The position numbers and the translations under genes are program-made. This document shows, one piece after another, positions 5,959 to 22,135 of a stretch of 64,000 bases of DNA. The notes beneath the pieces were generated by a model that worked only from the letters and a program-made list of their open reading frames with translations, ran no database searches and had not been told where the DNA came from. Position 1 is the first letter of the stretch, and every line of letters starts with the position of its first letter. Source of the stretch: Erythrobacter sp. ANT-B3C2 (GTDB lineage: Bacteria; Pseudomonadota; Alphaproteobacteria; Sphingomonadales; Sphingomonadaceae); assembly GCA_001683845.1 (NCBI GenBank), contig LXQI01000008.1, positions 1 through 64,000 on the forward strand. The letters run 5' to 3'.

Positions 5959-6396
5959 TCAGCCTTGTTGTCTAGCCGCGCGGGCGACGGCCAGGTCGGC
6001 CAGGTCGCGCCTTCCGATCGCGTCGAGGAACAGCGCGCCTTCGATGGTCGCCAGCAACGACGCAGTCGCCGGTAAGCGCTCCGACGCTTGTTCAGCGTCC
6101 AGGCGACTAGCCGTCCAACCCACAAAGCCTTCCATGATCGCAGCCGCGACTGTGCGGTGCGGCTGCTGATCACGCGAGGCGCCCGCGGCCAGCTCGAGCC
6201 ACAGCCGCATGTAGGGCCGAAGCTCGGCCGATCCAGCAACGGTCCAGACCGCGACGAGCAGTTCTGATGGCACCAGGCGCATGTCGGCGGGTATTGCTTT
6301 GTCGAGCAGGGCGGTGAGCCGCGTCGCGACGCGCTCCATGCCGCCAGGATAGAGGGCTACAAGAGAACCTCCCGGTTCTTGCTAGGTGAAGCTTCC
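5959..6396 (-). pseudogene. Remnant of a TetR/AcrR regulator
   Basis: The open part (from an ATG at 6339, 126 residues) is the ligand-binding half of a TetR regulator: helices running MERVATRLTALLDKAI to LADLAVARAARQQG. Upstream, the DNA still encodes the end of the HTH region in broken frames: GSFT, then KNREVLL in one frame and VALYPGG in the next, where an intact protein would read like GSFYYHFKNREVLLVALYPGG. So a frameshift and a small deletion lie at about 6360-6385, and everything N-terminal of GSF is gone, replaced by the opposite-strand sheath gene. It cannot bind DNA. Confidence 0.65.
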
Positions 6397-7952
6397 ATGC
6401 CCGAATATCTCGCACCCGGCGTTTTCATCGAGGAGATCAAGCACGGCCCGCGTCCGATCGAAGGCGTCTCGACCAGCACCGCCGCCTTTCTGGGCGAAAC
6501 CGAGCGCGGCACGACGCGTCCGAAACTCGTAACCAGCTACAACGAGTATAGCCGCCATTTTGGGAGCGTCTTCGCAGACGGCAAATATATGCCCGACGCG
6601 CTGAGCGGCTTCTTCAAGAATGGCGGCAGGCGCGCCTATGTCTGCCGGATAACCGGTGCCGGAGCGCTGACGGCGAGCCGCGATGTGGGCGGACTGACGA
6701 TCGAGGCGATCGGACCGGGCGACTGGGGCAACCGGCTGTTCGTCAGGATCGTCGGCAGCTCCATGACAGCAGGCTTGGCGCAGACGCCAATCGGCTTTCG
6801 CCTGCAGGTCGCCTATTGGCAGAGCGACGAGCCGGGCTGCGAATTTACCGACCCCTTCGATCCCGCGCAGGCGCGTGCCGTGCCGCAGCCGACCCTGACC
6901 GAGGATTTCGACGACCTCGTCTTCGACAATCCCGCATCGCCTGACTATTTCACCAAGCGGCTCGAGGACAATTCGGCTCTGTTGAAAGTGTCACTGACGG
7001 ACGATATTCCGCTCACAGCTCTTCCCGAGGCGGGCTTCGCGGCGCTGACGAATGGAGCCGACGGCGCCGCGCCAACCGTCGTCGACTTCAAGGGCGAAAA
7101 CACCGACAGCGATCTTCGCTCCGGGCTGTCGGCGCTGGACCTCGATGAGTGCCGCGAAGTGGCGCTGGTCACCGCACCGGCCGCGGCCGACGACGTGGTC
7201 GGCGAGATCCGCACCCACTGCGAGAACAATAAATTCCGCTTCGCGGTGATCGATTGCGATGCCAACGCCGCCGACGCCGGCAGCATCGATCCGCGTGCCG
7301 CTTGGGATAGCTCCCATGCGGCCTTCTATTATCCTTGGGTCTACACGGCGGACCTGCAGAGCGGCGCGCGACGCCTGGTGCCGCCGAGCGGTCTTGTGCT
7401 CGGCCTCTACGCGCGCACCGACAGTGAACGCGGCGTGTGGAAGGCGCCCGCCAACGACATCCTGCGCGGCGTCATTGACCTCGAATACCATGTCAATTCA
7501 GGCATGCAGGAGGTGCTCAACCCGCGCGGCGTCAACGCTATTCGACGCTTCCCGGGCGCGGCATTCGGGTGTGGGGAGCTCGCACGCTCTCCAGCAATCC
7601 GGAGTGGAAGTATGTCAGCGTCCGGCGGCTGTTCATCTTCCTGGAACGCTCGATCTACGAAGGCACGCAATGGGTCGCGTTCGAACCGAATGACGAGCGC
7701 TTGTGGGCGCGGGTGACCGACACGATTCGCCTGTTCCTGCGCACCCAGTGGCGCAACGGCGCGCTTGTGGGGACGACGGAGGATCAGGCCTTCATGGTCG
7801 CATGCGACCGGTCGACAATGACACAGGATGAAATCCTGAACGGTCGGTTGATTTGCCACATCGGCATCGCGCCGGTTCGCCCGTCCGAATTCATTATCTT
7901 CCGCATCTTCCATGACACCGCCGAGGCCGGCCGTCTGGATGAGCATCCATGA
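6397..7952 (+). pseudogene. Contractile tail sheath protein, frameshifted
   Basis: The N-terminal part from the ATG at 6397 begins MPEYLAPGVFIEEI and continues RPIEGVSTSTAAFLGETERG, the signature start of phage-tail/extracellular contractile injection system sheath proteins. The frame is normal to NAIRRFPG, then at about 7551-7558 one base is missing. The true continuation is in the next frame: RGIRVWGARTLSS, EWKYVSVRRLFIFLERSI, GTQWVAFEPNDERLWARV, ending at 7952. Joined, the protein would be about 518 residues, the normal sheath length. No tube, baseplate or ATPase gene is next to it, so this is a stranded, probably dead gene from a tailocin, prophage or contractile injection cluster. Confidence 0.8.
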
Positions 7953-11240: not shown

Positions 11241-12191
11241 CTAGCGGCAACTCCCTCTCCGCCATGATCTGAACCCTGCGCGATCATCGCCGTCTCGGCG
11301 GCATCGGATCCTGAACGAGTTTCGATCGAGTGCACGCAGCACGATGGGAACCGCCATGTGTGGCAGCGTCAGGATGGACCAGGTCGTGAAGCTGGCCGCG
11401 ACGGCTCTTTCCGAAAGCGGCGATGCGGCGCCGAATGCGAAGGCGACGTTGGCGATGCCGATTGCCGCCAGCGTCAGCAGGAGGACGGTTGCCCCACGCT
11501 GTCCCTTCGCGTGCGCCGACAGCGCCGCAAGCCCGGAGTGCAAGTGCAGCGGCGAATGGAACAGGCAAAAGAAGAGCGCGAAGCCGATCACCGGGGGCAG
11601 CATCGCCATCGAGACCAGGGCAAGGCTGCCGCCGAGGGCATCGGCGCGCGCACCGACGCTCCACAACAGACCGATGGCGGCCAGCGCGACCATGGTCGCA
11701 ACCGGCGCCACCGACCGCAGCAGATCGACAATGATCGCGCTCGCGCCGGTCCCGGCGATCGCGGCGAACAGGCCGGTGAGTGCAATAGGGTGGGTCAGCG
11801 CTGGCAGCGCAAGCAACGCCAACGCTACCGCATGGGCGAGGAACGCCGATCCGGTGCGGCTCCAATCCTCGGCGAAATGCACGACGGCGAGCCCATAGAA
11901 CAGGGCAAGAGCGAATACCGGACTCGTCAGCCACGTCGCAGCCATTGCAGCCGCAAGCCCAAGATAAAGAAGAAGGATCAACGACCGCGAGACCCCCGGC
12001 TGCGCCTGCCTGAAAAGGTCGAGATCGAGCGTACCGTGGGGCAGCCCAATCACGAGGATCGCCCCGCAGGCGATCACCGTTGCTTTCGTCGTGTCGAGCG
12101 GCACGCCGGCCGCCAGTCCGACCAGACAGAGCGCAGTGGCGATGGCCAGCGCAGCGGGGAACGGTGTTGATTGAGCGACCGGATGGTGCAT
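11241..12191 (-). CDS. blh: Brp/Blh family beta-carotene 15,15'-dioxygenase
   Basis: A polytopic membrane protein of 316 residues that cleaves beta-carotene into two retinal molecules, supplying the chromophore of the rhodopsin 51 bases upstream. The family's iron-binding His motifs are all present: GLPHGTLDLDL, VVHFAEDW, FHSPLHLHSG and TLPHMAVP. At least six hydrophobic segments can be seen. The last 28 or so residues are arginine-rich (RIRCRRDGDDRAGF) and unlike the family; a reading-frame slip after LRALDR is possible but would not touch the catalytic core. It is co-directional with the rhodopsin and almost surely in one operon. Confidence 0.9.
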   Translation of the reverse strand: MHHPVAQSTPFPAALAIATALCLVGLAAGVPLDTTKATVIACGAILVIGLPHGTLDLDLFRQAQPGVSRSLILLLYLGLAAAMAATWLTSPVFALALFYGLAVVHFAEDWSRTGSAFLAHAVALALLALPALTHPIALTGLFAAIAGTGASAIIVDLLRSVAPVATMVALAAIGLLWSVGARADALGGSLALVSMAMLPPVIGFALFFCLFHSPLHLHSGLAALSAHAKGQRGATVLLLTLAAIGIANVAFAFGAASPLSERAVAASFTTWSILTLPHMAVPIVLRALDRNSFRIRCRRDGDDRAGFRSWRRGSCR

Positions 12192-12242
12192 GAAGGGTGC
12201 TTCGATGAAGGCGGGCGAGGCCGGAGCCCCGCCCGCAAAAGG

Positions 12243-13019
12243 TCAGGCCGTCGCCGGTACCGGCTTGCCAACATCCTTGTATTCGATCGCGGTCTTCCGG
12301 ACGGCGATCATGTAGATCAATATGCCCAGACCGGCCTTAGCGACGATGTCCGCGATGGTGTAGCCAATCTGGATGCCGGTCTCGATCGTGGCCCCCGTCA
12401 AGTTGGTGTAAGGGATCATATAGACGAGAGGGTAAAAGCCCCACGACGCGAAGGTCAGCAGACGGGCATGCTTCACCAGGCCGCGCACGCTTTCCGGCTG
12501 GTGTTCGATCGCTTCGCCAAGGCCCTTGAAAAGCTCCCAGACGATATAGACGAACGGAATGGCCGACAGCGTGCCCCAGAGGGCGCGGGTCGCGTTATCA
12601 TCGGCGATTTCAACCGGATATCCCAAAATGACCATCAGTGCCGCAGCAAGGCCCAGCTTGGTGGCCTTGGACACCGTTTCCGAAGACGAGAGCCGCATCA
12701 CGAGGATCAGTTCAATGAGCAGCAGCGGCACGGTGAGCAGCCAGTCAACGTAACGGTAAGCGTCGTTGAAGGCGAGGCCGGTGACCACCACCACGCCCTC
12801 GCGCACCTGAAAGGCGCCCTCCCAGCTCCCGAAGATCCGCCAGTAATGATAGGCGGCGATGGCCGTGACGAGCCCCGAGATGGTCAACGCGGGTTTGTAG
12901 GCGGCTCCGACTTGCGAGCGGCTGATCCACAGGAACAGCGTCGTGGCGGCCATGGTGGCGAAGGTGAACGAGAAGGCATTGTATACGAAAAAGTATTGGG
13001 CTGCGGTAATTGTTTCCAC
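12243..13019 (-). CDS. Proteorhodopsin/xanthorhodopsin-type proton-pumping rhodopsin
   Basis: A 258-residue seven-helix retinal protein in the inner membrane that pumps protons outward in light. Helix C reads RYVDWLLTVPLLLIE: Asp92, Thr96 and Glu103 form the DTE proton-pump motif (D97/T101/E108 of proteorhodopsin). Leu100 is at the tuning position 105, predicting green absorption. His58 corresponds to the proton-acceptor partner His75, and helix G carries Asp224 and the Schiff-base Lys228 (ADIVAK). The start is the GTG at 13019 with ribosome binding site GAGGAAAG; an upstream ATG would add 34 residues with no rhodopsin counterpart. Whether it binds an antenna carotenoid as xanthorhodopsin does cannot be decided by eye. 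Confidence 0.95.
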   Translation of the reverse strand: METITAAQYFFVYNAFSFTFATMAATTLFLWISRSQVGAAYKPALTISGLVTAIAAYHYWRIFGSWEGAFQVREGVVVVTGLAFNDAYRYVDWLLTVPLLLIELILVMRLSSSETVSKATKLGLAAALMVILGYPVEIADDNATRALWGTLSAIPFVYIVWELFKGLGEAIEHQPESVRGLVKHARLLTFASWGFYPLVYMIPYTNLTGATIETGIQIGYTIADIVAKAGLGILIYMIAVRKTAIEYKDVGKPVPATA

Positions 13020-13164
13020 GTCTTGCTTTCCTCTGCTGGTCCATGAGAGCAGAAAACACCAGATCTGTCCGGTCACCAACATCGCACAAGACGCGCGATG
13101 AAGATGATCGGTAAAGATCACGACGACGCATTATTGCCGCAGTCCGAGCTCTCTACACGGATTG

Positions 13165-13182
13165 CGCGGGGACTAAACCGTT
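13165..13182 (-). promoter_or_regulatory. Candidate LOV-regulator binding site upstream of the rhodopsin
   Basis: On the minus strand the sequence CGGTTTAGTCCCCG lies about 150 bases upstream of the rhodopsin start, in the 204-bp gap between the LOV-HTH gene and the rhodopsin. The core TTTAGTCC matches, as I recall it, the core of the DNA used as an EL222 binding site. This is memory-based and one short match, so it is a hint only. Confidence 0.25.
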
Positions 13183-13223
13183 GCCAATCTTTTCACTATA
13201 CGGCCCTTTTCCCGTAGTCTCTT

Positions 13224-13946
13224 CTAAAGCCCGGCCTCGACCGCGATGCGGATCGCATCGGCGGTGTTGGCCGTCTCGAGCTTTTGAAGCAGCAGCGAAC
13301 GGTGCATCTTGATTGTCTTCTCGCTAAGCGAAAGCTGCCATGCGATCTGCTTGGTTCGAAAGCCTCGGGAAATCTGCTGCAGCACCTCGCGCTGTCGGGG
13401 CGAGAGCGTCTTGACGAGCGCGACGGCATGGTCTCGGCGGCTCGACGATGGTCCCATCGCCTCCTCCTGCAACTCGACCTGGGACCCGAGAAAATACTCG
13501 AGCTCGCGATCGTAATCGAAGACGGGTGCCACCAGCACCGCATTGCGGAATGGAGTTCGATCGCGCTTGTAATTGAGGATCTCGACCAGCACCGGCCGCT
13601 TGTCGCAAATGCCGCGTCTGATCCGCTCGGTCAGCCAGGGCTCGGTCGCGGGTCCGGCCAGGAATTTACAGGTGCGTCCGACAATCTCGTCGACCGGATA
13701 GCCCGTCAGATCGCAGAACACCTGATTGACCGCGACGATCGGATTGCGCGGCAACCGGGGGTTGCTGATCACCGATGCAATCGGGCTCAGGAGAATGGAG
13801 GTTTGGAGCGAGTTCATCGCGCCGTCCAGTTCAGGATCCATGGTCGTGGTCAACTCAATGTCTGCAACCAGAGTGGCTCCGCGCTGACCGCATCCGGGGG
13901 AGTAGAACACCACGCTCACGAAAGCGTCCGAGGGGCTGGTCCACAT
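13224..13946 (-). CDS. EL222-type LOV-HTH (LuxR-type) blue-light regulator
   Basis: A 240-residue one-component photoreceptor: LOV domain (about 52-158), linker helix, then a LuxR/GerE HTH (about 180-240; TLSPRQREVLQ and SEKTIKMHRSLLLQKL). The flavin-adduct Cys is Cys93 in GRTCKFLAG; the flavin ring contacts Asn125, Asn135 and Gln156 are in place (LNYKRDRTPFRNAVL, GSQVEL). It closely resembles EL222 of Erythrobacter, which dimerises and binds DNA on blue light. Odd point: the usual Asn before the Cys is Thr92. The start is uncertain; the ATG at 13841 (Met36) would give a protein closer in layout to EL222. It precedes the rhodopsin in the same direction. Confidence 0.9.
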   Translation of the reverse strand: MWTSPSDAFVSVVFYSPGCGQRGATLVADIELTTTMDPELDGAMNSLQTSILLSPIASVISNPRLPRNPIVAVNQVFCDLTGYPVDEIVGRTCKFLAGPATEPWLTERIRRGICDKRPVLVEILNYKRDRTPFRNAVLVAPVFDYDRELEYFLGSQVELQEEAMGPSSSRRDHAVALVKTLSPRQREVLQQISRGFRTKQIAWQLSLSEKTIKMHRSLLLQKLETANTADAIRIAVEAGL

Positions 13947-14229
13947 GAAAACGGCAGCAATTTTCTATCGTCGGCGTTTCAGCCAGTGGATCCTGATCGG
14001 TCGAGTCCGCCGACATTCGGACTAGGAATACAGCGCAGCGGGAGGGGCTTCGATCGCTGGAGGCACCGCTCGTGACATTGGCAGTGCCCGCCCGAGGCGA
14101 GATGACCCGCAGCTGTCGAAAAAAATAGTTTTTGCAGATCACCTTCCGCCGGCTGTCCGTGGGACAATATTGATATCGCGCTAGAGCGAGCTTTCTGAAT
14201 ATGCATGCGCCTAGCGTCGATCACCCTGA

Positions 14230-14241
14230 CCTTTGGTCCGT
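14230..14241 (+). promoter_or_regulatory. Possible second LOV-regulator site upstream of the fasciclin gene
   Basis: CCTTTGGTCCGT, 70 bases before the fasciclin start, differs at two positions from the CCTTTAGTCCAT core I recall for EL222 binding DNA. The gap it sits in separates the divergent LOV-HTH and fasciclin genes. Weak evidence, listed because it pairs with the site near the rhodopsin. Confidence 0.15.
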
Positions 14242-14310
14242 ATCGTCAATTCGGCCCGGCCGGACCAAACGCCAAAAGCCCAAGTTTATCAAACTCTCGA
14301 AAAGGCCATC

Positions 14311-14895
14311 ATGAACTTTCGTTTAATTGCACCACTCCTATTGGGCACCGCCCTAACACTTGCCGCTTGCGGCGAGCCCGCCGAAAACGAAACCACCGTA
14401 GAGGATACTGGCATGGCTGATCAGATGACCAACGACGCCCCGACCACCGCCGGCACGATCGTCGACGTTGCTTCGGGCAACAGCGACTTTTCGACACTTG
14501 TAGCCGCGGTTCAGGCCGCTGATCTGGTCGAGACGCTGTCGGGCCCCGGTCCGTTCACCGTTTTCGCGCCGACCAACGCGGCGTTTGACGCGCTGCCAGA
14601 TGGCACGGTCGAGGAACTGACCACCAATGACACCGACACGCTTGGCGGCATTCTCACCTACCACGTCGTCTCGAGCGAAGTAATGGCCGAAGACCTGATT
14701 GCGGCGATCGAGGAAGCGGGCGTGGACGGCTACACGGTCGAAACTGTCAACGGCAAGACTCTGACCGCGATGCTGAGCGGCAGCGATGTGACGCTGACCG
14801 ATGCGGCCGGCAACTCGGCCACCGTGATCGCGACCGACGTAGACGCGTCGAACGGCGTAATCCATGCAATTGACACGGTGCTCATGCCCCAGTGA
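14311..14895 (+). CDS. Fasciclin-domain lipoprotein
   Basis: A 194-residue lipoprotein: signal peptide and lipobox LTLAAC with the acylated Cys at about residue 20, an acidic linker (ENETTVEDTGMADQMTND), then one complete fasciclin (FAS1) domain. The FAS1 hallmarks are GPFTVFAPTNAAFDALP and LTYHVVSSEV, ending VIHAIDTVLMP. Such proteins sit on the membrane surface and take part in adhesion; some in phototrophs respond to light or stress. I chose the ATG at 14311, because an upstream in-frame GTG adds 26 residues in front of the signal peptide. It is divergent from the LOV regulator. Confidence 0.92.
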   Translation: MNFRLIAPLLLGTALTLAACGEPAENETTVEDTGMADQMTNDAPTTAGTIVDVASGNSDFSTLVAAVQAADLVETLSGPGPFTVFAPTNAAFDALPDGTVEELTTNDTDTLGGILTYHVVSSEVMAEDLIAAIEEAGVDGYTVETVNGKTLTAMLSGSDVTLTDAAGNSATVIATDVDASNGVIHAIDTVLMPQ

Positions 14896-19139: not shown

Positions 19140-20330
19140 TCAGAACCAAGCGCGGATGCCGACCACGGCGTTGATCGACGAGGCATCCTCCCCGGCAATG
19201 CGCGCGAGATCTGCCGTCCGGCCGAGTTTCGTTTCGTGAACAATCCCGACATAGGGCGCAAATTCTCGCATAAATTCGTAGCGCAACCTCAGGCCGGCCT
19301 CGGCGCTGGTCAGGCCCGCTCCAAGGCCCAGCTCGGGAATGTCCTGCGCCGATAGGTCGAATTCAACCTTCGGCTGGAGGATCAGGCGCTGGGTAATCCG
19401 CTGGTCATATTCGGCCGAAGCACTCGCGCGCACCTCGCCCTCAGTCGAAAAGTAAACATATCCATCGACCTCGAGCCAGTAGGGGGCCAGACCCTCAACG
19501 CCGACTACAGCATGGGTCCGGTCCGGGCCCACACCCAGATCCTGCCGCACGCCGGCCTGAAAATTAAAGTAGGGGCCGATGGCGCGGCTGTAGAGCGCCT
19601 TCAGCTCGACGCTCCCGATCGGCTCGCCGAGCTCTCCTTCCCCATCGGCCTTGAATACGAAGCGGTTGATGTCCCCACCGAACCAGAAGTCGCTTTCGAA
19701 TTTGTAGCCTTCGTGCCCGTCGGCGATTTTCACCTCTGCAAGATCGATCATGACCTGGCTGAAGGTGCCGCCACCATGTTCGCGGCGTAGTGCATCCCGC
19801 GCGGGCTGCATTACTGTTTGTCCCCACACCCTATCCGCATAGTTCGCCGCCACCGGGCGCGGAGCCGGCAGGTCGCCTGCAGGCAGGTTCGTCCCCAGCG
19901 CGTCCCCTCCGCCGGGCCCGGTCGCGGGCGTGCAATGCCCCATTGTCGCATGTTCGGCCGGGCAGTCCGGGTCTTCTGCCGGCGGTGAGGCCGGCTCTGC
20001 CCCGGACATTGCACAGTGCCCCATCGCCGCATGTTCGGGCGGGCAACCTCCCGCACTCTCGCCGGGCGCCGGCTCCTGCATTGTGCAGTGCCCCATCTCC
20101 GCATGTTCGGGGGTGCAGCCGGCATCGCCATGCACGCCAGCCGAGGGGTCGCTCATCAAACAATGGCCCATCGCCGCATGCTCCGGCGTGCACGGGGCCG
20201 ATCCGGCAGGCGCGGAGCTCTGAGCCGGTGTCGCACCATGCTGGCCGTGCCCGCCGTGCGATTGCGCCAGCACGGGGGTCGCCGCGACGAGGACGCTCAG
20301 TGCAACGCCGCTGGAAAGCAGCCTGTTCAT
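19140..20330 (-). CDS. copB: Copper resistance protein B
   Basis: A 396-residue outer-membrane copper-resistance protein. After a signal peptide (1-23, VLAQ) comes a His/Met/Cys-rich region with four copies of Cys-x2-Glu-His-x2-Met-Gly-His-Cys, at Cys47-Cys57, Cys72-Cys82, Cys96-Cys106 and Cys123-Cys133. The rest (from about 160) is the CopB barrel domain: DRVWGQTVMQPARDALR, YKFESDFWFGGDINRF, ending AVVGIRAWF. The His/Met repeats should bind Cu(I)/Cu(II). The ATG at 20330 overlaps the copA stop (ATGA), so the two are translated together. Confidence 0.93.
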   Translation of the reverse strand: MNRLLSSGVALSVLVAATPVLAQSHGGHGQHGATPAQSSAPAGSAPCTPEHAAMGHCLMSDPSAGVHGDAGCTPEHAEMGHCTMQEPAPGESAGGCPPEHAAMGHCAMSGAEPASPPAEDPDCPAEHATMGHCTPATGPGGGDALGTNLPAGDLPAPRPVAANYADRVWGQTVMQPARDALRREHGGGTFSQVMIDLAEVKIADGHEGYKFESDFWFGGDINRFVFKADGEGELGEPIGSVELKALYSRAIGPYFNFQAGVRQDLGVGPDRTHAVVGVEGLAPYWLEVDGYVYFSTEGEVRASASAEYDQRITQRLILQPKVEFDLSAQDIPELGLGAGLTSAEAGLRLRYEFMREFAPYVGIVHETKLGRTADLARIAGEDASSINAVVGIRAWF

Positions 20331-22135
20331 GCCGCTTCCTCCCGCGGGCGGACCGTCACCACCTGCATCATCCCTGCGTGCATGTGGTAGAGCATGTGGC
20401 AGTGGAACGCCCAATCGCCGACGGCATCGGCGGTGAAGTCGAACGCCGCGGTGCCGCCGGGCTGCACGTTAACCGTGTGCTTGCGCGGCGCGTAATCGCC
20501 ATGCCCGGTCACCAACTCGAAGAAATGGCCGTGCAGGTGGATGGGGTGGGTCATCATCGTGTCGTTCACGAGCGTGATCCGGACACGCTCGCCTTCGAGG
20601 AACGGGATCGGGTCCTTGACCTCGGAGAGCTTCTCTCCGTCGAACGCCCACATGTAGCGCTCCATGTTGCCGGTGAGGTGGATGCGCATCTCTCGTTCCG
20701 GCGCGCGGATGTCGGGGTTGCGCTCCACCGCGACGAGATCGCGATAGGTCAGCACGCGGTGGCCTCCATCGTCCAGCCCCTGGCCGGGATCGCCCATCCG
20801 GTCGACCGGCATGGGCGAGATCGTCTGGACCGTCGGCGTCTTTTTCACGCTCGGGGCGACGGAGAAATCGCGCATCGAATGGTCCATGGCCATTCCGCCG
20901 GCCGCACCGTGCCCCATTGCCGCGTGATCCACGGCGGTGCCCCCCTCCATCGTGCAATGCCCCATCGCCGCGTGCTCGGCGGTGCAGCCGGCCGCCGCGC
21001 CCGACATGGCGCCGCCGCCATGGTCCATTCCGCCCATTCCCATGTCCGCCATGGTGGCGAGAGGTCGCTCGCGCAGCGGCGGCACCACCGCCGCCATGCC
21101 GGGCCGGGGCGCCAGCGTGGCGACCGCCATGCCCGACCTGTCGATGCTCTCGCCGATGATGGTATAGGCGCGCTCGTCCGCCGGCTCGACGATGGCATCG
21201 TACGTCTCGGCCACTGCGATCTGGAACTCGTCCACTTCCACCGGCCGCACATTCAGCCCGTCCGCCTGGACGATGGTGATCTTCAGCCCCGGGATGCGCA
21301 CGTTGAAGGTCGTCATCGCCGAGGCATTGACGAAGCGCAGCCGCACCCGCTCGCCCGCGTGGAACAGGCCGGTCCAATTGTCCTGCGGCCCGTGCCCGTT
21401 AATGAGGTAAGTGTAGGTCGAACCCGTCACGTCGGCGACATCGGTCGGGTCCATCCGCATCCGGCCCCACTCCAGGCGCTCGCTGGCCGACATCGGCTCG
21501 CCATCCGTCGCCGTCAGCTTCTGGTGATTGAAATAGCCTCCCATCTGCTTGAGCTTCCGGAAGATCGTGTGCGGGTGCATGAAGCTGAAGTCAGACAGCA
21601 CCACCACATGCTCGCGATCCGACACGATCGGATCGGTGCCCGCGGGGTCGATCACCATCGGGCCGTAATGCCCCATCTGCTCCTGCAACCCAGAGTGGCT
21701 GTGATACCAATAGGTGCCGGCCTGCAGGATCGGGAACTCGTAAGTGAAGGTGGTGTGCGGCCTGATCCCCGGGAAGCTGACCCCCGGCACGCCATCCATG
21801 TGGAACGGCAGGATCAGCCCATGCCAGTGGATCGAGCTGTCCTCATCCAGTGCGTTTTCGACGTGCAGGCGCACGTTCTGCCCCTCGCGCAGCCGGATCA
21901 GCGGCCCGGGCACGGTGCCGTTGATGCCGATGGCATGGCCCTGCCGGCCATCGATGGTCGCCATCTGGTGAGCGATGCGCAGGCGGATATCCTCGCCGGA
22001 GACCACTGCGAGATCGCGCGAAAGGCCGGGCGCATTGGTCTGCGCCCAGGCGGGCATCCATGCGGACAGCGCCAGCGCGCTGCCGCCGATTCCCGCACCA
22101 CGCAGCAGCTGCCGCCGATCGAACAATTCATTCAT
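20327..22135 (-). CDS. copA: Copper resistance multicopper oxidase CopA
   Basis: A 602-residue periplasmic multicopper oxidase that oxidises Cu(I) to the less toxic Cu(II). The N-terminus is a Tat signal (RRQLLRG followed by a hydrophobic stretch to AWAQ). All four copper sites are seen: HWHG at 103-106, HSHSG at 145-149, HPIHLHG at 530-536, and HCHMLYHMH at 578-586 with the type-1 Cys579. A Met/His-rich insert at about 361-421 includes CTAEHAAMGHC (384-394), the same repeat as in CopB, plus a degenerate copy ending MGHG at 410. It heads the copA-copB pair in the CueR-controlled operon. Confidence 0.95.
   Translation of the reverse strand: MNELFDRRQLLRGAGIGGSALALSAWMPAWAQTNAPGLSRDLAVVSGEDIRLRIAHQMATIDGRQGHAIGINGTVPGPLIRLREGQNVRLHVENALDEDSSIHWHGLILPFHMDGVPGVSFPGIRPHTTFTYEFPILQAGTYWYHSHSGLQEQMGHYGPMVIDPAGTDPIVSDREHVVVLSDFSFMHPHTIFRKLKQMGGYFNHQKLTATDGEPMSASERLEWGRMRMDPTDVADVTGSTYTYLINGHGPQDNWTGLFHAGERVRLRFVNASAMTTFNVRIPGLKITIVQADGLNVRPVEVDEFQIAVAETYDAIVEPADERAYTIIGESIDRSGMAVATLAPRPGMAAVVPPLRERPLATMADMGMGGMDHGGGAMSGAAAGCTAEHAAMGHCTMEGGTAVDHAAMGHGAAGGMAMDHSMRDFSVAPSVKKTPTVQTISPMPVDRMGDPGQGLDDGGHRVLTYRDLVAVERNPDIRAPEREMRIHLTGNMERYMWAFDGEKLSEVKDPIPFLEGERVRITLVNDTMMTHPIHLHGHFFELVTGHGDYAPRKHTVNVQPGGTAAFDFTADAVGDWAFHCHMLYHMHAGMMQVVTVRPREEAA

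What the first reader, a model, noticed from the sequence alone, without database searches (positions are those of the whole stretch)
11241..13946. Blue-light LOV-HTH regulator directly upstream of a rhodopsin and retinal synthase
An EL222-type photoreceptor, a green-type DTE proton pump and the Blh dioxygenase lie in one direction within 2.7 kb, with a fasciclin lipoprotein divergent and tspO nearby. This suggests that blue light, sensed by the LOV protein, controls a green-light proton pump. A direct control link of this kind is, as far as I know, little studied.
Basis: partly seen in the sequence, partly recalled or inferred. Interest (0 to 1): 0.65.

Follow-up and report, generated by a model that had tools for sequence, protein, structure and literature searches.

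The report
Blue-light switch for a light pump
In this bacterium and many relatives, a blue-light-sensing DNA-binding protein sits beside the genes for a light-driven proton pump, and a conserved DNA site in front of the pump gene resembles that protein's known target, so blue light probably helps switch the pump on.

Summary
Observation confirmed: EL222-type LOV-LuxR protein, xanthorhodopsin (XR) and Blh lie in that order on the minus strand. The LOV-XR gap holds TACGG-N8-CCGTA (13199-13216), the only exact copy found in the 2.7-Mb assembly. Upstream of XR in relatives with a tandem LOV gene the same arms recur (at most one mismatch in 24 of 30; 0.44 expected) and the core fits the published EL222 consensus exactly in 15 of 30 (1.0 expected). 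Where no LOV gene is adjacent the arms occur in 3 of 19, in distant XRs in 0 of 27. The box abuts a sigma70-like promoter with a 17-bp spacer, centred near -44, as a class II activator site would be. XR-linked LOV genes are not one clade. Against: the window's own core misses the EL222 consensus at two positions, the ten divergent loci lack the box, and in S. glacialis AAP5 XR was silent in a light/dark test. The Sphingomonas synteny was already in print, with the neighbour called a histidine kinase. Nothing was tested at the bench. Unlinked LOV genes often carry the same box before a candidate small RNA or a fasciclin gene.

The parts
13224..13946 (-). EL222-type LOV-LuxR transcription factor (longest ORF 240 aa; likely real start ATG 13841, 205 aa)
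13476..13751 (-). LOV (PAS) domain; photoactive Cys in GRTCKFL (nine relatives have GRNC or GQNC)
13242..13409 (-). LuxR-type HTH (GerE)
13199..13216 (-). palindromic box TACGGGAAAAGGGCCGTA, proposed LOV-HTH operator; only exact TACGG-N8-CCGTA found in the assembly
13193..13198 (-). proposed -35 element TAGTGA
   Evidence: register
13170..13175 (-). proposed -10 element TAGTCC (17-bp spacer; predicted start of transcription near 13163)
   Evidence: register; start inferred
13020..13163 (-). predicted 144-nt leader of the XR-blh transcript
   Evidence: inferred
12243..13019 (-). xanthorhodopsin, DTE, green type, with antenna-type Gly149
11241..12191 (-). Blh, beta-carotene 15,15'-dioxygenase
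14225..14242 (+). weaker box-like site CCTGACCTTTGGTCCGTA in front of the fasciclin gene (4 mismatches to the palindrome, 1 to the EL222 consensus)
14311..14895 (+). fasciclin-domain protein, possible second target
   Evidence: box

Best explanation
The LOV-LuxR protein is the dedicated local regulator of the xanthorhodopsin-blh operon. In blue light the flavin adduct releases the HTH, the protein dimerises and binds the palindromic box at 13199-13216, which abuts the -35 element of the XR promoter, and recruits RNA polymerase as a class II activator, so that pump and retinal-making enzyme are made when light is present. Shown here: the genes, the box, its fixed register to a sigma70-like promoter, its recurrence with tandem LOV genes, and repeated linkage in evolution. 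Inferred: that this LOV protein binds the box, that binding depends on light, and that the effect is activation.
For: EL222 over 190 residues, E 1.6e-72. Published EL222 consensus RGNCYWWRGNCY (PMC10521638 passage) matched exactly in 15 of 30 XR upstream regions with a tandem LOV gene (1.0 expected from letter shuffles); arms TACGG-N8-CCGTA with at most one mismatch in 24 of 30 (0.44 expected); 3 of 19 XR loci without adjacent LOV (0.18 expected), 0 of 27 distant XRs (0.26 expected). After collapse of similar upstream regions to 18 groups: arms in 13, core exact in 7, A at -11 in 16, G at -33 in 17; mean information 0.14 bit in flanking columns against 0.5-2 bits in the motif. In 30 aligned boxes G at +11.5 is invariant and A at +33.5 is in 29, the register of -35/-10 with a 17-bp spacer. 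Only exact arm match found in the own assembly. In 13 related genomes the XR site is the single best match in 11 and tied in 2. Held-out genomes: box in 2 of 2 tandem, 0 of 6 without adjacent LOV, 0 of 1 divergent. Box present upstream of XR although LOV lies after blh (L077), about 9 kb away (L093) or 1.47 kb away (L084, with one box after LOV and one before XR). XR-linked LOVs as one clade rejected, p-AU 2e-78. The synthetic pBLind promoter, EL222 operator in place of the lux box, is blue-light activated about 5-fold (PMC8766309 and PMC9614035 passages).
Against: The window's own box has two mismatches to the EL222 core in its left half, and the three exact EL222 consensus matches in the window lie elsewhere, at chance level. 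The ten divergent loci lack the box (0 of 10); they share another element next to a TTGACA-like -35, also found in three loci with no adjacent LOV. L086 and L119 fit the register poorly. In AAP5 the XR gene was silent in light and dark samples of a 12-h cycle (PMC7762795 section 13). The pattern used was drawn partly from the same genomes. Letter shuffles ignore relatedness. The LOV motif of the window reads GRTC, not GRNC.
Confidence: 0.65

Rival explanations
1. The LOV protein binds the box but represses XR, for example in light, or acts with a second signal so that light alone does nothing.
For: EL222 represses when its operator lies between -35 and -10 (PMC9614035 passage). XR silent in lit AAP5 samples. 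Structured leader in several Sphingomonas loci could carry a second layer.
Against: The box lies upstream of, not between, -35 and -10 in the common register.
Confidence: 0.15
2. The box is the site of another LuxR-type regulator, or a terminator hairpin of the LOV gene.
For: It lies just after the LOV stop codon in tandem loci and after 9 of 31 LOV genes not linked to XR; it is palindromic. Three XR loci without adjacent LOV have it.
Against: No U-run in most copies; fixed register to -35/-10; present before XR when LOV lies elsewhere (L077, L084, L093); core equals the EL222 consensus. Two of the three LOV-less loci with the box have LOV-HTH genes elsewhere in the genome; the third is a 1.7-Mb assembly with none found.
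Confidence: 0.12
3. Mere co-location: the genes travel together without direct control.
For: Blh and XR are a common pair; linkage is kept within clades. LOV genes are frequent in this family.
Against: Linkage in tandem, divergent and downstream orders, several LOV lineages, conserved operator.
Confidence: 0.06
4. XR is a sensor that signals through a neighbouring blue-light histidine kinase, as proposed for AAP5.
For: Proposal in the abstract of PMC7762795.
Against: In the window and in the relatives aligned here the neighbour is a LOV-LuxR protein ending in an HTH; PDB itself names EL222 'Sensor histidine kinase' (3p7n), so the name may be a mislabel. I did not examine the AAP5 gene itself. 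DTE motif fits a pump.
Confidence: 0.02

Closest known systems
EL222 of Erythrobacter litoralis HTCC2594
   Same: LOV plus LuxR HTH, homologous over the whole length; operator core of the same form in relatives of the window
   Different: GRTC instead of GRNC at the photoactive Cys; window's own core has two mismatches; here it is linked to XR-blh. I could not read the EL222 target paper
Sphingomonas glacialis AAP5 XR cluster (Kopejtka 2020, PMC7762795)
   Same: XR, blh and a blue-light protein gene in one cluster, synteny in some Sphingomonas
   Different: There the neighbour is called a histidine kinase and XR a possible sensor; no operator or promoter was described in the sections I read
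pBLind synthetic promoter
   Same: EL222 operator upstream of -35, blue light activates
   Different: Man-made in E. coli; here the arrangement appears natural
LuxR lux-box class II promoters
   Same: Palindromic about 20-bp site abutting -35 (position of the lux box recalled)
   Different: Light instead of acyl-homoserine lactone

Membership tests
EL222-type LOV-HTH | LOV domain with photoactive Cys and flavin-contact Asn/Gln | tested here: met
   Cys, both Asn of NYK...FRN and Gln of FLGSQ kept; Asn before the Cys is Thr; roles recalled
EL222-type LOV-HTH | C-terminal LuxR HTH and full-length homology to EL222 | tested here: met
   PF00196 65.2 bits; 190 residues to EL222
EL222-type LOV-HTH | operator RGNCYWWRGNCY at the target | tested here: inconclusive
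   exact in 15 of 30 tandem loci, but 2 mismatches in the window
EL222-type LOV-HTH | blue-light-dependent DNA binding | not testable with these tools
   needs protein
xanthorhodopsin-type proton pump | DTE motif, Schiff-base Lys, nearest relatives XR | tested here: met
xanthorhodopsin-type proton pump | antenna-pocket Gly | tested here: met
   Gly149; 14 of 15 in the alignment
xanthorhodopsin-type proton pump | proton pumping and carotenoid binding | not testable with these tools
   -
Blh dioxygenase | PF15461 and TIGR03753 over cut-off | tested here: met
LuxR-type class II activated promoter | operator abutting -35, 17-bp spacer, -10 | tested here: met
   by sequence register in 30 aligned boxes and 18 collapsed groups; window -35 TAGTGA and -10 TAGTCC are weak
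blue-light histidine kinase | kinase domain in the LOV gene | tested here: not met
   no kinase domain; HTH at the C-terminus

The most novel reading that the evidence does not exclude
EL222-type LOV-HTH genes of Sphingomonadales carry, just after their own stop codon, a portable blue-light promoter with exchangeable cargo: a xanthorhodopsin-blh operon, a fasciclin gene, or an undescribed structured small RNA with C-rich loops. The pump operon was captured by this light switch several times, with change of LOV partner.
Probability: 0.45. Interest if true: 0.8.

Novelty: new variant of a known kind. Interest (0 to 1): 0.64.

Why it matters
If true, it gives EL222-type photoreceptors, much used in optogenetics, a natural target promoter, and explains how a bacterium would tie an energy-harvesting pump to light. 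It also corrects the idea that XR in Sphingomonas signals through a histidine kinase. The box, the promoter and the predicted light response can be tested in one reporter experiment.

Tried and rejected
Considered and set aside: histidine-kinase partner (no kinase domain); terminator hairpin as sole explanation of the box (L077, L084, L093); a large box regulon (the box search in 13 genomes gave no more hits overall than the backward-read control; in the own genome 27 sites with at most one mismatch against 88 for the control), so only location, not number, is telling. Rfam on 18 loci found two tRNAs and nothing at the candidate RNA. The idea that the window's leader carries the same RNA was not supported: z -2.0 on 123 nt and -2.6 on 140 nt, without the long closing stem. 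The literature route to the native EL222 target, the AAP5 PNAS 2022 paper and the 2024 photoreceptor survey of dual phototrophs failed because they are not held.

Rows dropped before counts: L075 (truncated XR); duplicates L061, L063, L070 of L105, L089, L108; L097, L120 (no upstream DNA), L136 and L144; four of 34 rows with poor automatic boxes (L064, L077, L086, L119); rows without a full LOV-HTH match, L098 among them. In some searches some box centres (window, L064, L072, L077, L078, L086, L093, L109, L119) were set by me. In one search L222 and L227 gave the same upstream hits as L088 and L104, so they are probably not independent.

Full report
What is there. The finding's genes are real and read on the minus strand: LOV-LuxR (13224-13946, likely start 13841), xanthorhodopsin (12243-13019) and Blh (11241-12191). 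The rhodopsin keeps the DTE motif, the green-type leucine, the Schiff-base lysine and a glycine at the antenna position of xanthorhodopsin (roles recalled, in line with PMC7762795 section 9). The assembly also has two Photo_RC matches (pufL/M type) and a strong lycopene-cyclase match, so the organism is probably a dual phototroph able to make the retinal precursor (the cyclase family also rings in 10 of 14 control genomes, but at E 5.4e-76 here).

Recurrence. In 199 genomes of the family sample, 29 had a rhodopsin match and 89 a LOV match at E 1e-20 or better, LOV proteins of other build included. Of 15 loci with a full xanthorhodopsin of this kind, window included, 10 have an EL222-like gene within about 2.5 kb. 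A LOV-HTH lies beside XR in 34: 24 tandem upstream, 8 divergent (one, L098, matched only over the HTH), 2 after blh. All 34 are among the 51 loci with XR identity of at least 68%; none among the 29 below 66%. Carriers include Brevundimonas, Blastomonas, Sphingomonas, Sphingorhabdus, Novosphingopyxis and Qipengyuania.

The box. Reading the LOV-XR gaps showed a palindrome, in Brevundimonas ATACGGCCTAAAGGCCGTAT. Its core fits RGNCYWWRGNCY, the EL222 consensus quoted in PMC10521638 (passage), a test independent of my reading. In 400 bases upstream of XR the core is exact in 15 of 30 tandem loci (1.0 expected from 50 letter shuffles each), and the arms TACGG-N8-CCGTA have at most one mismatch in 24 of 30 (0.44 expected). 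The same arms occur in 0 of 10 divergent loci (0.16 expected), 0 of 2 downstream loci (one of which, L077, has the exact core in a perfect palindrome), 3 of 19 loci with no adjacent LOV (0.18) and 0 of 27 distant XRs (0.26). In the window the arms are exact at 13199-13216, and no other exact match was found in the 2.7-Mb, 91% complete assembly. The window's core, however, misses the EL222 consensus at two positions, and the three exact consensus matches in the window lie elsewhere at chance level. In 13 related genomes the XR site is the single best match in 11 and tied in two; the pattern came partly from these genomes, and total hit numbers do not exceed the backward-read control, so the support is in the position.

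Promoter register. In 30 boxes aligned on their centre, T at +9.5 is in 28, G at +11.5 in 30, T at +32.5 in 20 and A at +33.5 in 29. That is a TnG -35, a TA -10 and a 17-bp spacer, with the box centre at -44.5. After collapse to 18 groups of dissimilar upstream DNA the A holds in 16, the G in 17, the T of the -10 in 9, the arms in 13, the exact core in 7. The window's elements are TAGTGA and TAGTCC, weak without help, as for an activated promoter. The synthetic pBLind promoter, in which the EL222 operator replaces the lux box, has this arrangement and is activated by blue light (PMC8766309 and PMC9614035, passages).

The box belongs to XR, not only to the end of the LOV gene. L077 has it before XR though LOV lies after blh. 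L084 has 1.47 kb between LOV and XR and one box at each end. L093 has it though no LOV is adjacent; the LOV gene of that genome lies about 9 kb off on what appears to be the same contig, judged by equal contig length. Of 15 genomes whose XR locus lacks LOV, 9 have an EL222-like gene elsewhere. In nine genomes first met in a later order-wide search the box is in 2 of 2 tandem loci, 0 of 6 without adjacent LOV and 0 of 1 divergent locus; two of the six look like repeats of earlier loci.

Evolution. A tree of 83 LOV proteins needs six changes between XR-linked and not, and one clade for the 41 linked rows is rejected (log-likelihood 258 lower, p-AU 2e-78). In the quick rhodopsin tree L077 and L089 are sisters near the window, yet their LOVs fall in different LOV clades, and so for L119 and L086. 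In each pair one LOV (L089, L086) has a long branch, so partner exchange is likely rather than proven.

Against the reading. The divergent loci lack the box; they share ATGGTATAAAGG(A/T)TAGGTTG, which ends in a TTGACA-like -35 in the same register, but three Sphingorhabdus loci without adjacent LOV have a close form of it too, so its owner is open. In AAP5, XR was silent in light and dark samples of a 12-h cycle (PMC7762795 section 13). From memory, the 2022 PNAS paper on AAP5 reports XR only in light and only in the cold; it is not held and I could not check it. Light may thus be needed but not enough.

Wider pattern. Of 31 LOV loci not linked to XR within 1.5 kb, 9 have the box or the exact core within 3-29 bases after the LOV stop (no shuffle control was run for this count). 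In 15 unlinked loci with a looser box, the 130 bases after the predicted start fold with z of -2.5 or lower in 12; trimmed, five gave -3.8 to -5.9. Many have a long closing stem around C-rich loops and lie convergent to a housekeeping gene. Eleven XR leaders of Sphingomonas type share a hairpin; 9 of 26 pairs have a compensatory change, mostly in the inner helix, and the covariation term is small. Over all linked leaders only 8 of 29 reach z -2.5. No Rfam family matched in 18 loci searched. Fasciclin genes in the fetched loci have a box-like site within 200 bases in 8 of 17 (at most four mismatches; 0.82 expected) and 5 of 17 (at most three; 0.105 expected), the window's own among the eight but weak. 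The second LOV gene of the own genome is followed by a fasciclin gene, with only a poor box.

Prior work. Ten literature searches listed no paper that I could recognise as linking an EL222-type protein to a rhodopsin promoter; most were seen as listings only. Kopejtka 2020 has the synteny under another name. Ihalainen 2024, a survey of photoreceptors in dual phototrophs, was seen only as a reference entry and may hold more.

Verdict. Ordinary parts in a well-supported, apparently natural light-switch arrangement: confidence 0.65 for LOV control by activation, 0.45 for the wider cargo-cassette reading.

Noticed in passing
L035, L037, L038, L042, L045, L048, L049, L050, L054, L057, L179 (just after the LOV-HTH stop): Candidate small RNA of about 100 nt with long closing stem and C-rich (CUCCCUCC-like) loops, behind the box and promoter register; no Rfam match.
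   Followed up: partly
G000:C31:22039-22605 (L197): Second EL222-like gene of the own genome, followed directly by a fasciclin gene.
   Followed up: partly
L034/L201 and L204: LOV-HTH gene followed by box and fasciclin gene(s); in L204 with a TATCTT -10 in register.
   Followed up: partly
L065, L066, L087, L090, L091, L094, L095, L098, L099, L101, L225: Divergent LOV-XR loci share ATGGTATAAAGG(A/T)TAGGTTG-like DNA at the same distance from -35 as the box; possibly a variant operator.
   Followed up: partly
6379-7952: Tail-sheath-like protein (name by eye, no family search) split over two overlapping + strand ORFs in different frames (6379-7716, 7569-7952).
   Followed up: no
19140-20414: Minus-strand ORF with repeated CxPEHAxMGHC motifs, perhaps metal-binding (by eye).
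   Followed up: no
13640-13690 (minus): GRTC in place of GRNC at the photoactive Cys of the window's LOV, which could change the photocycle speed.
   Followed up: no
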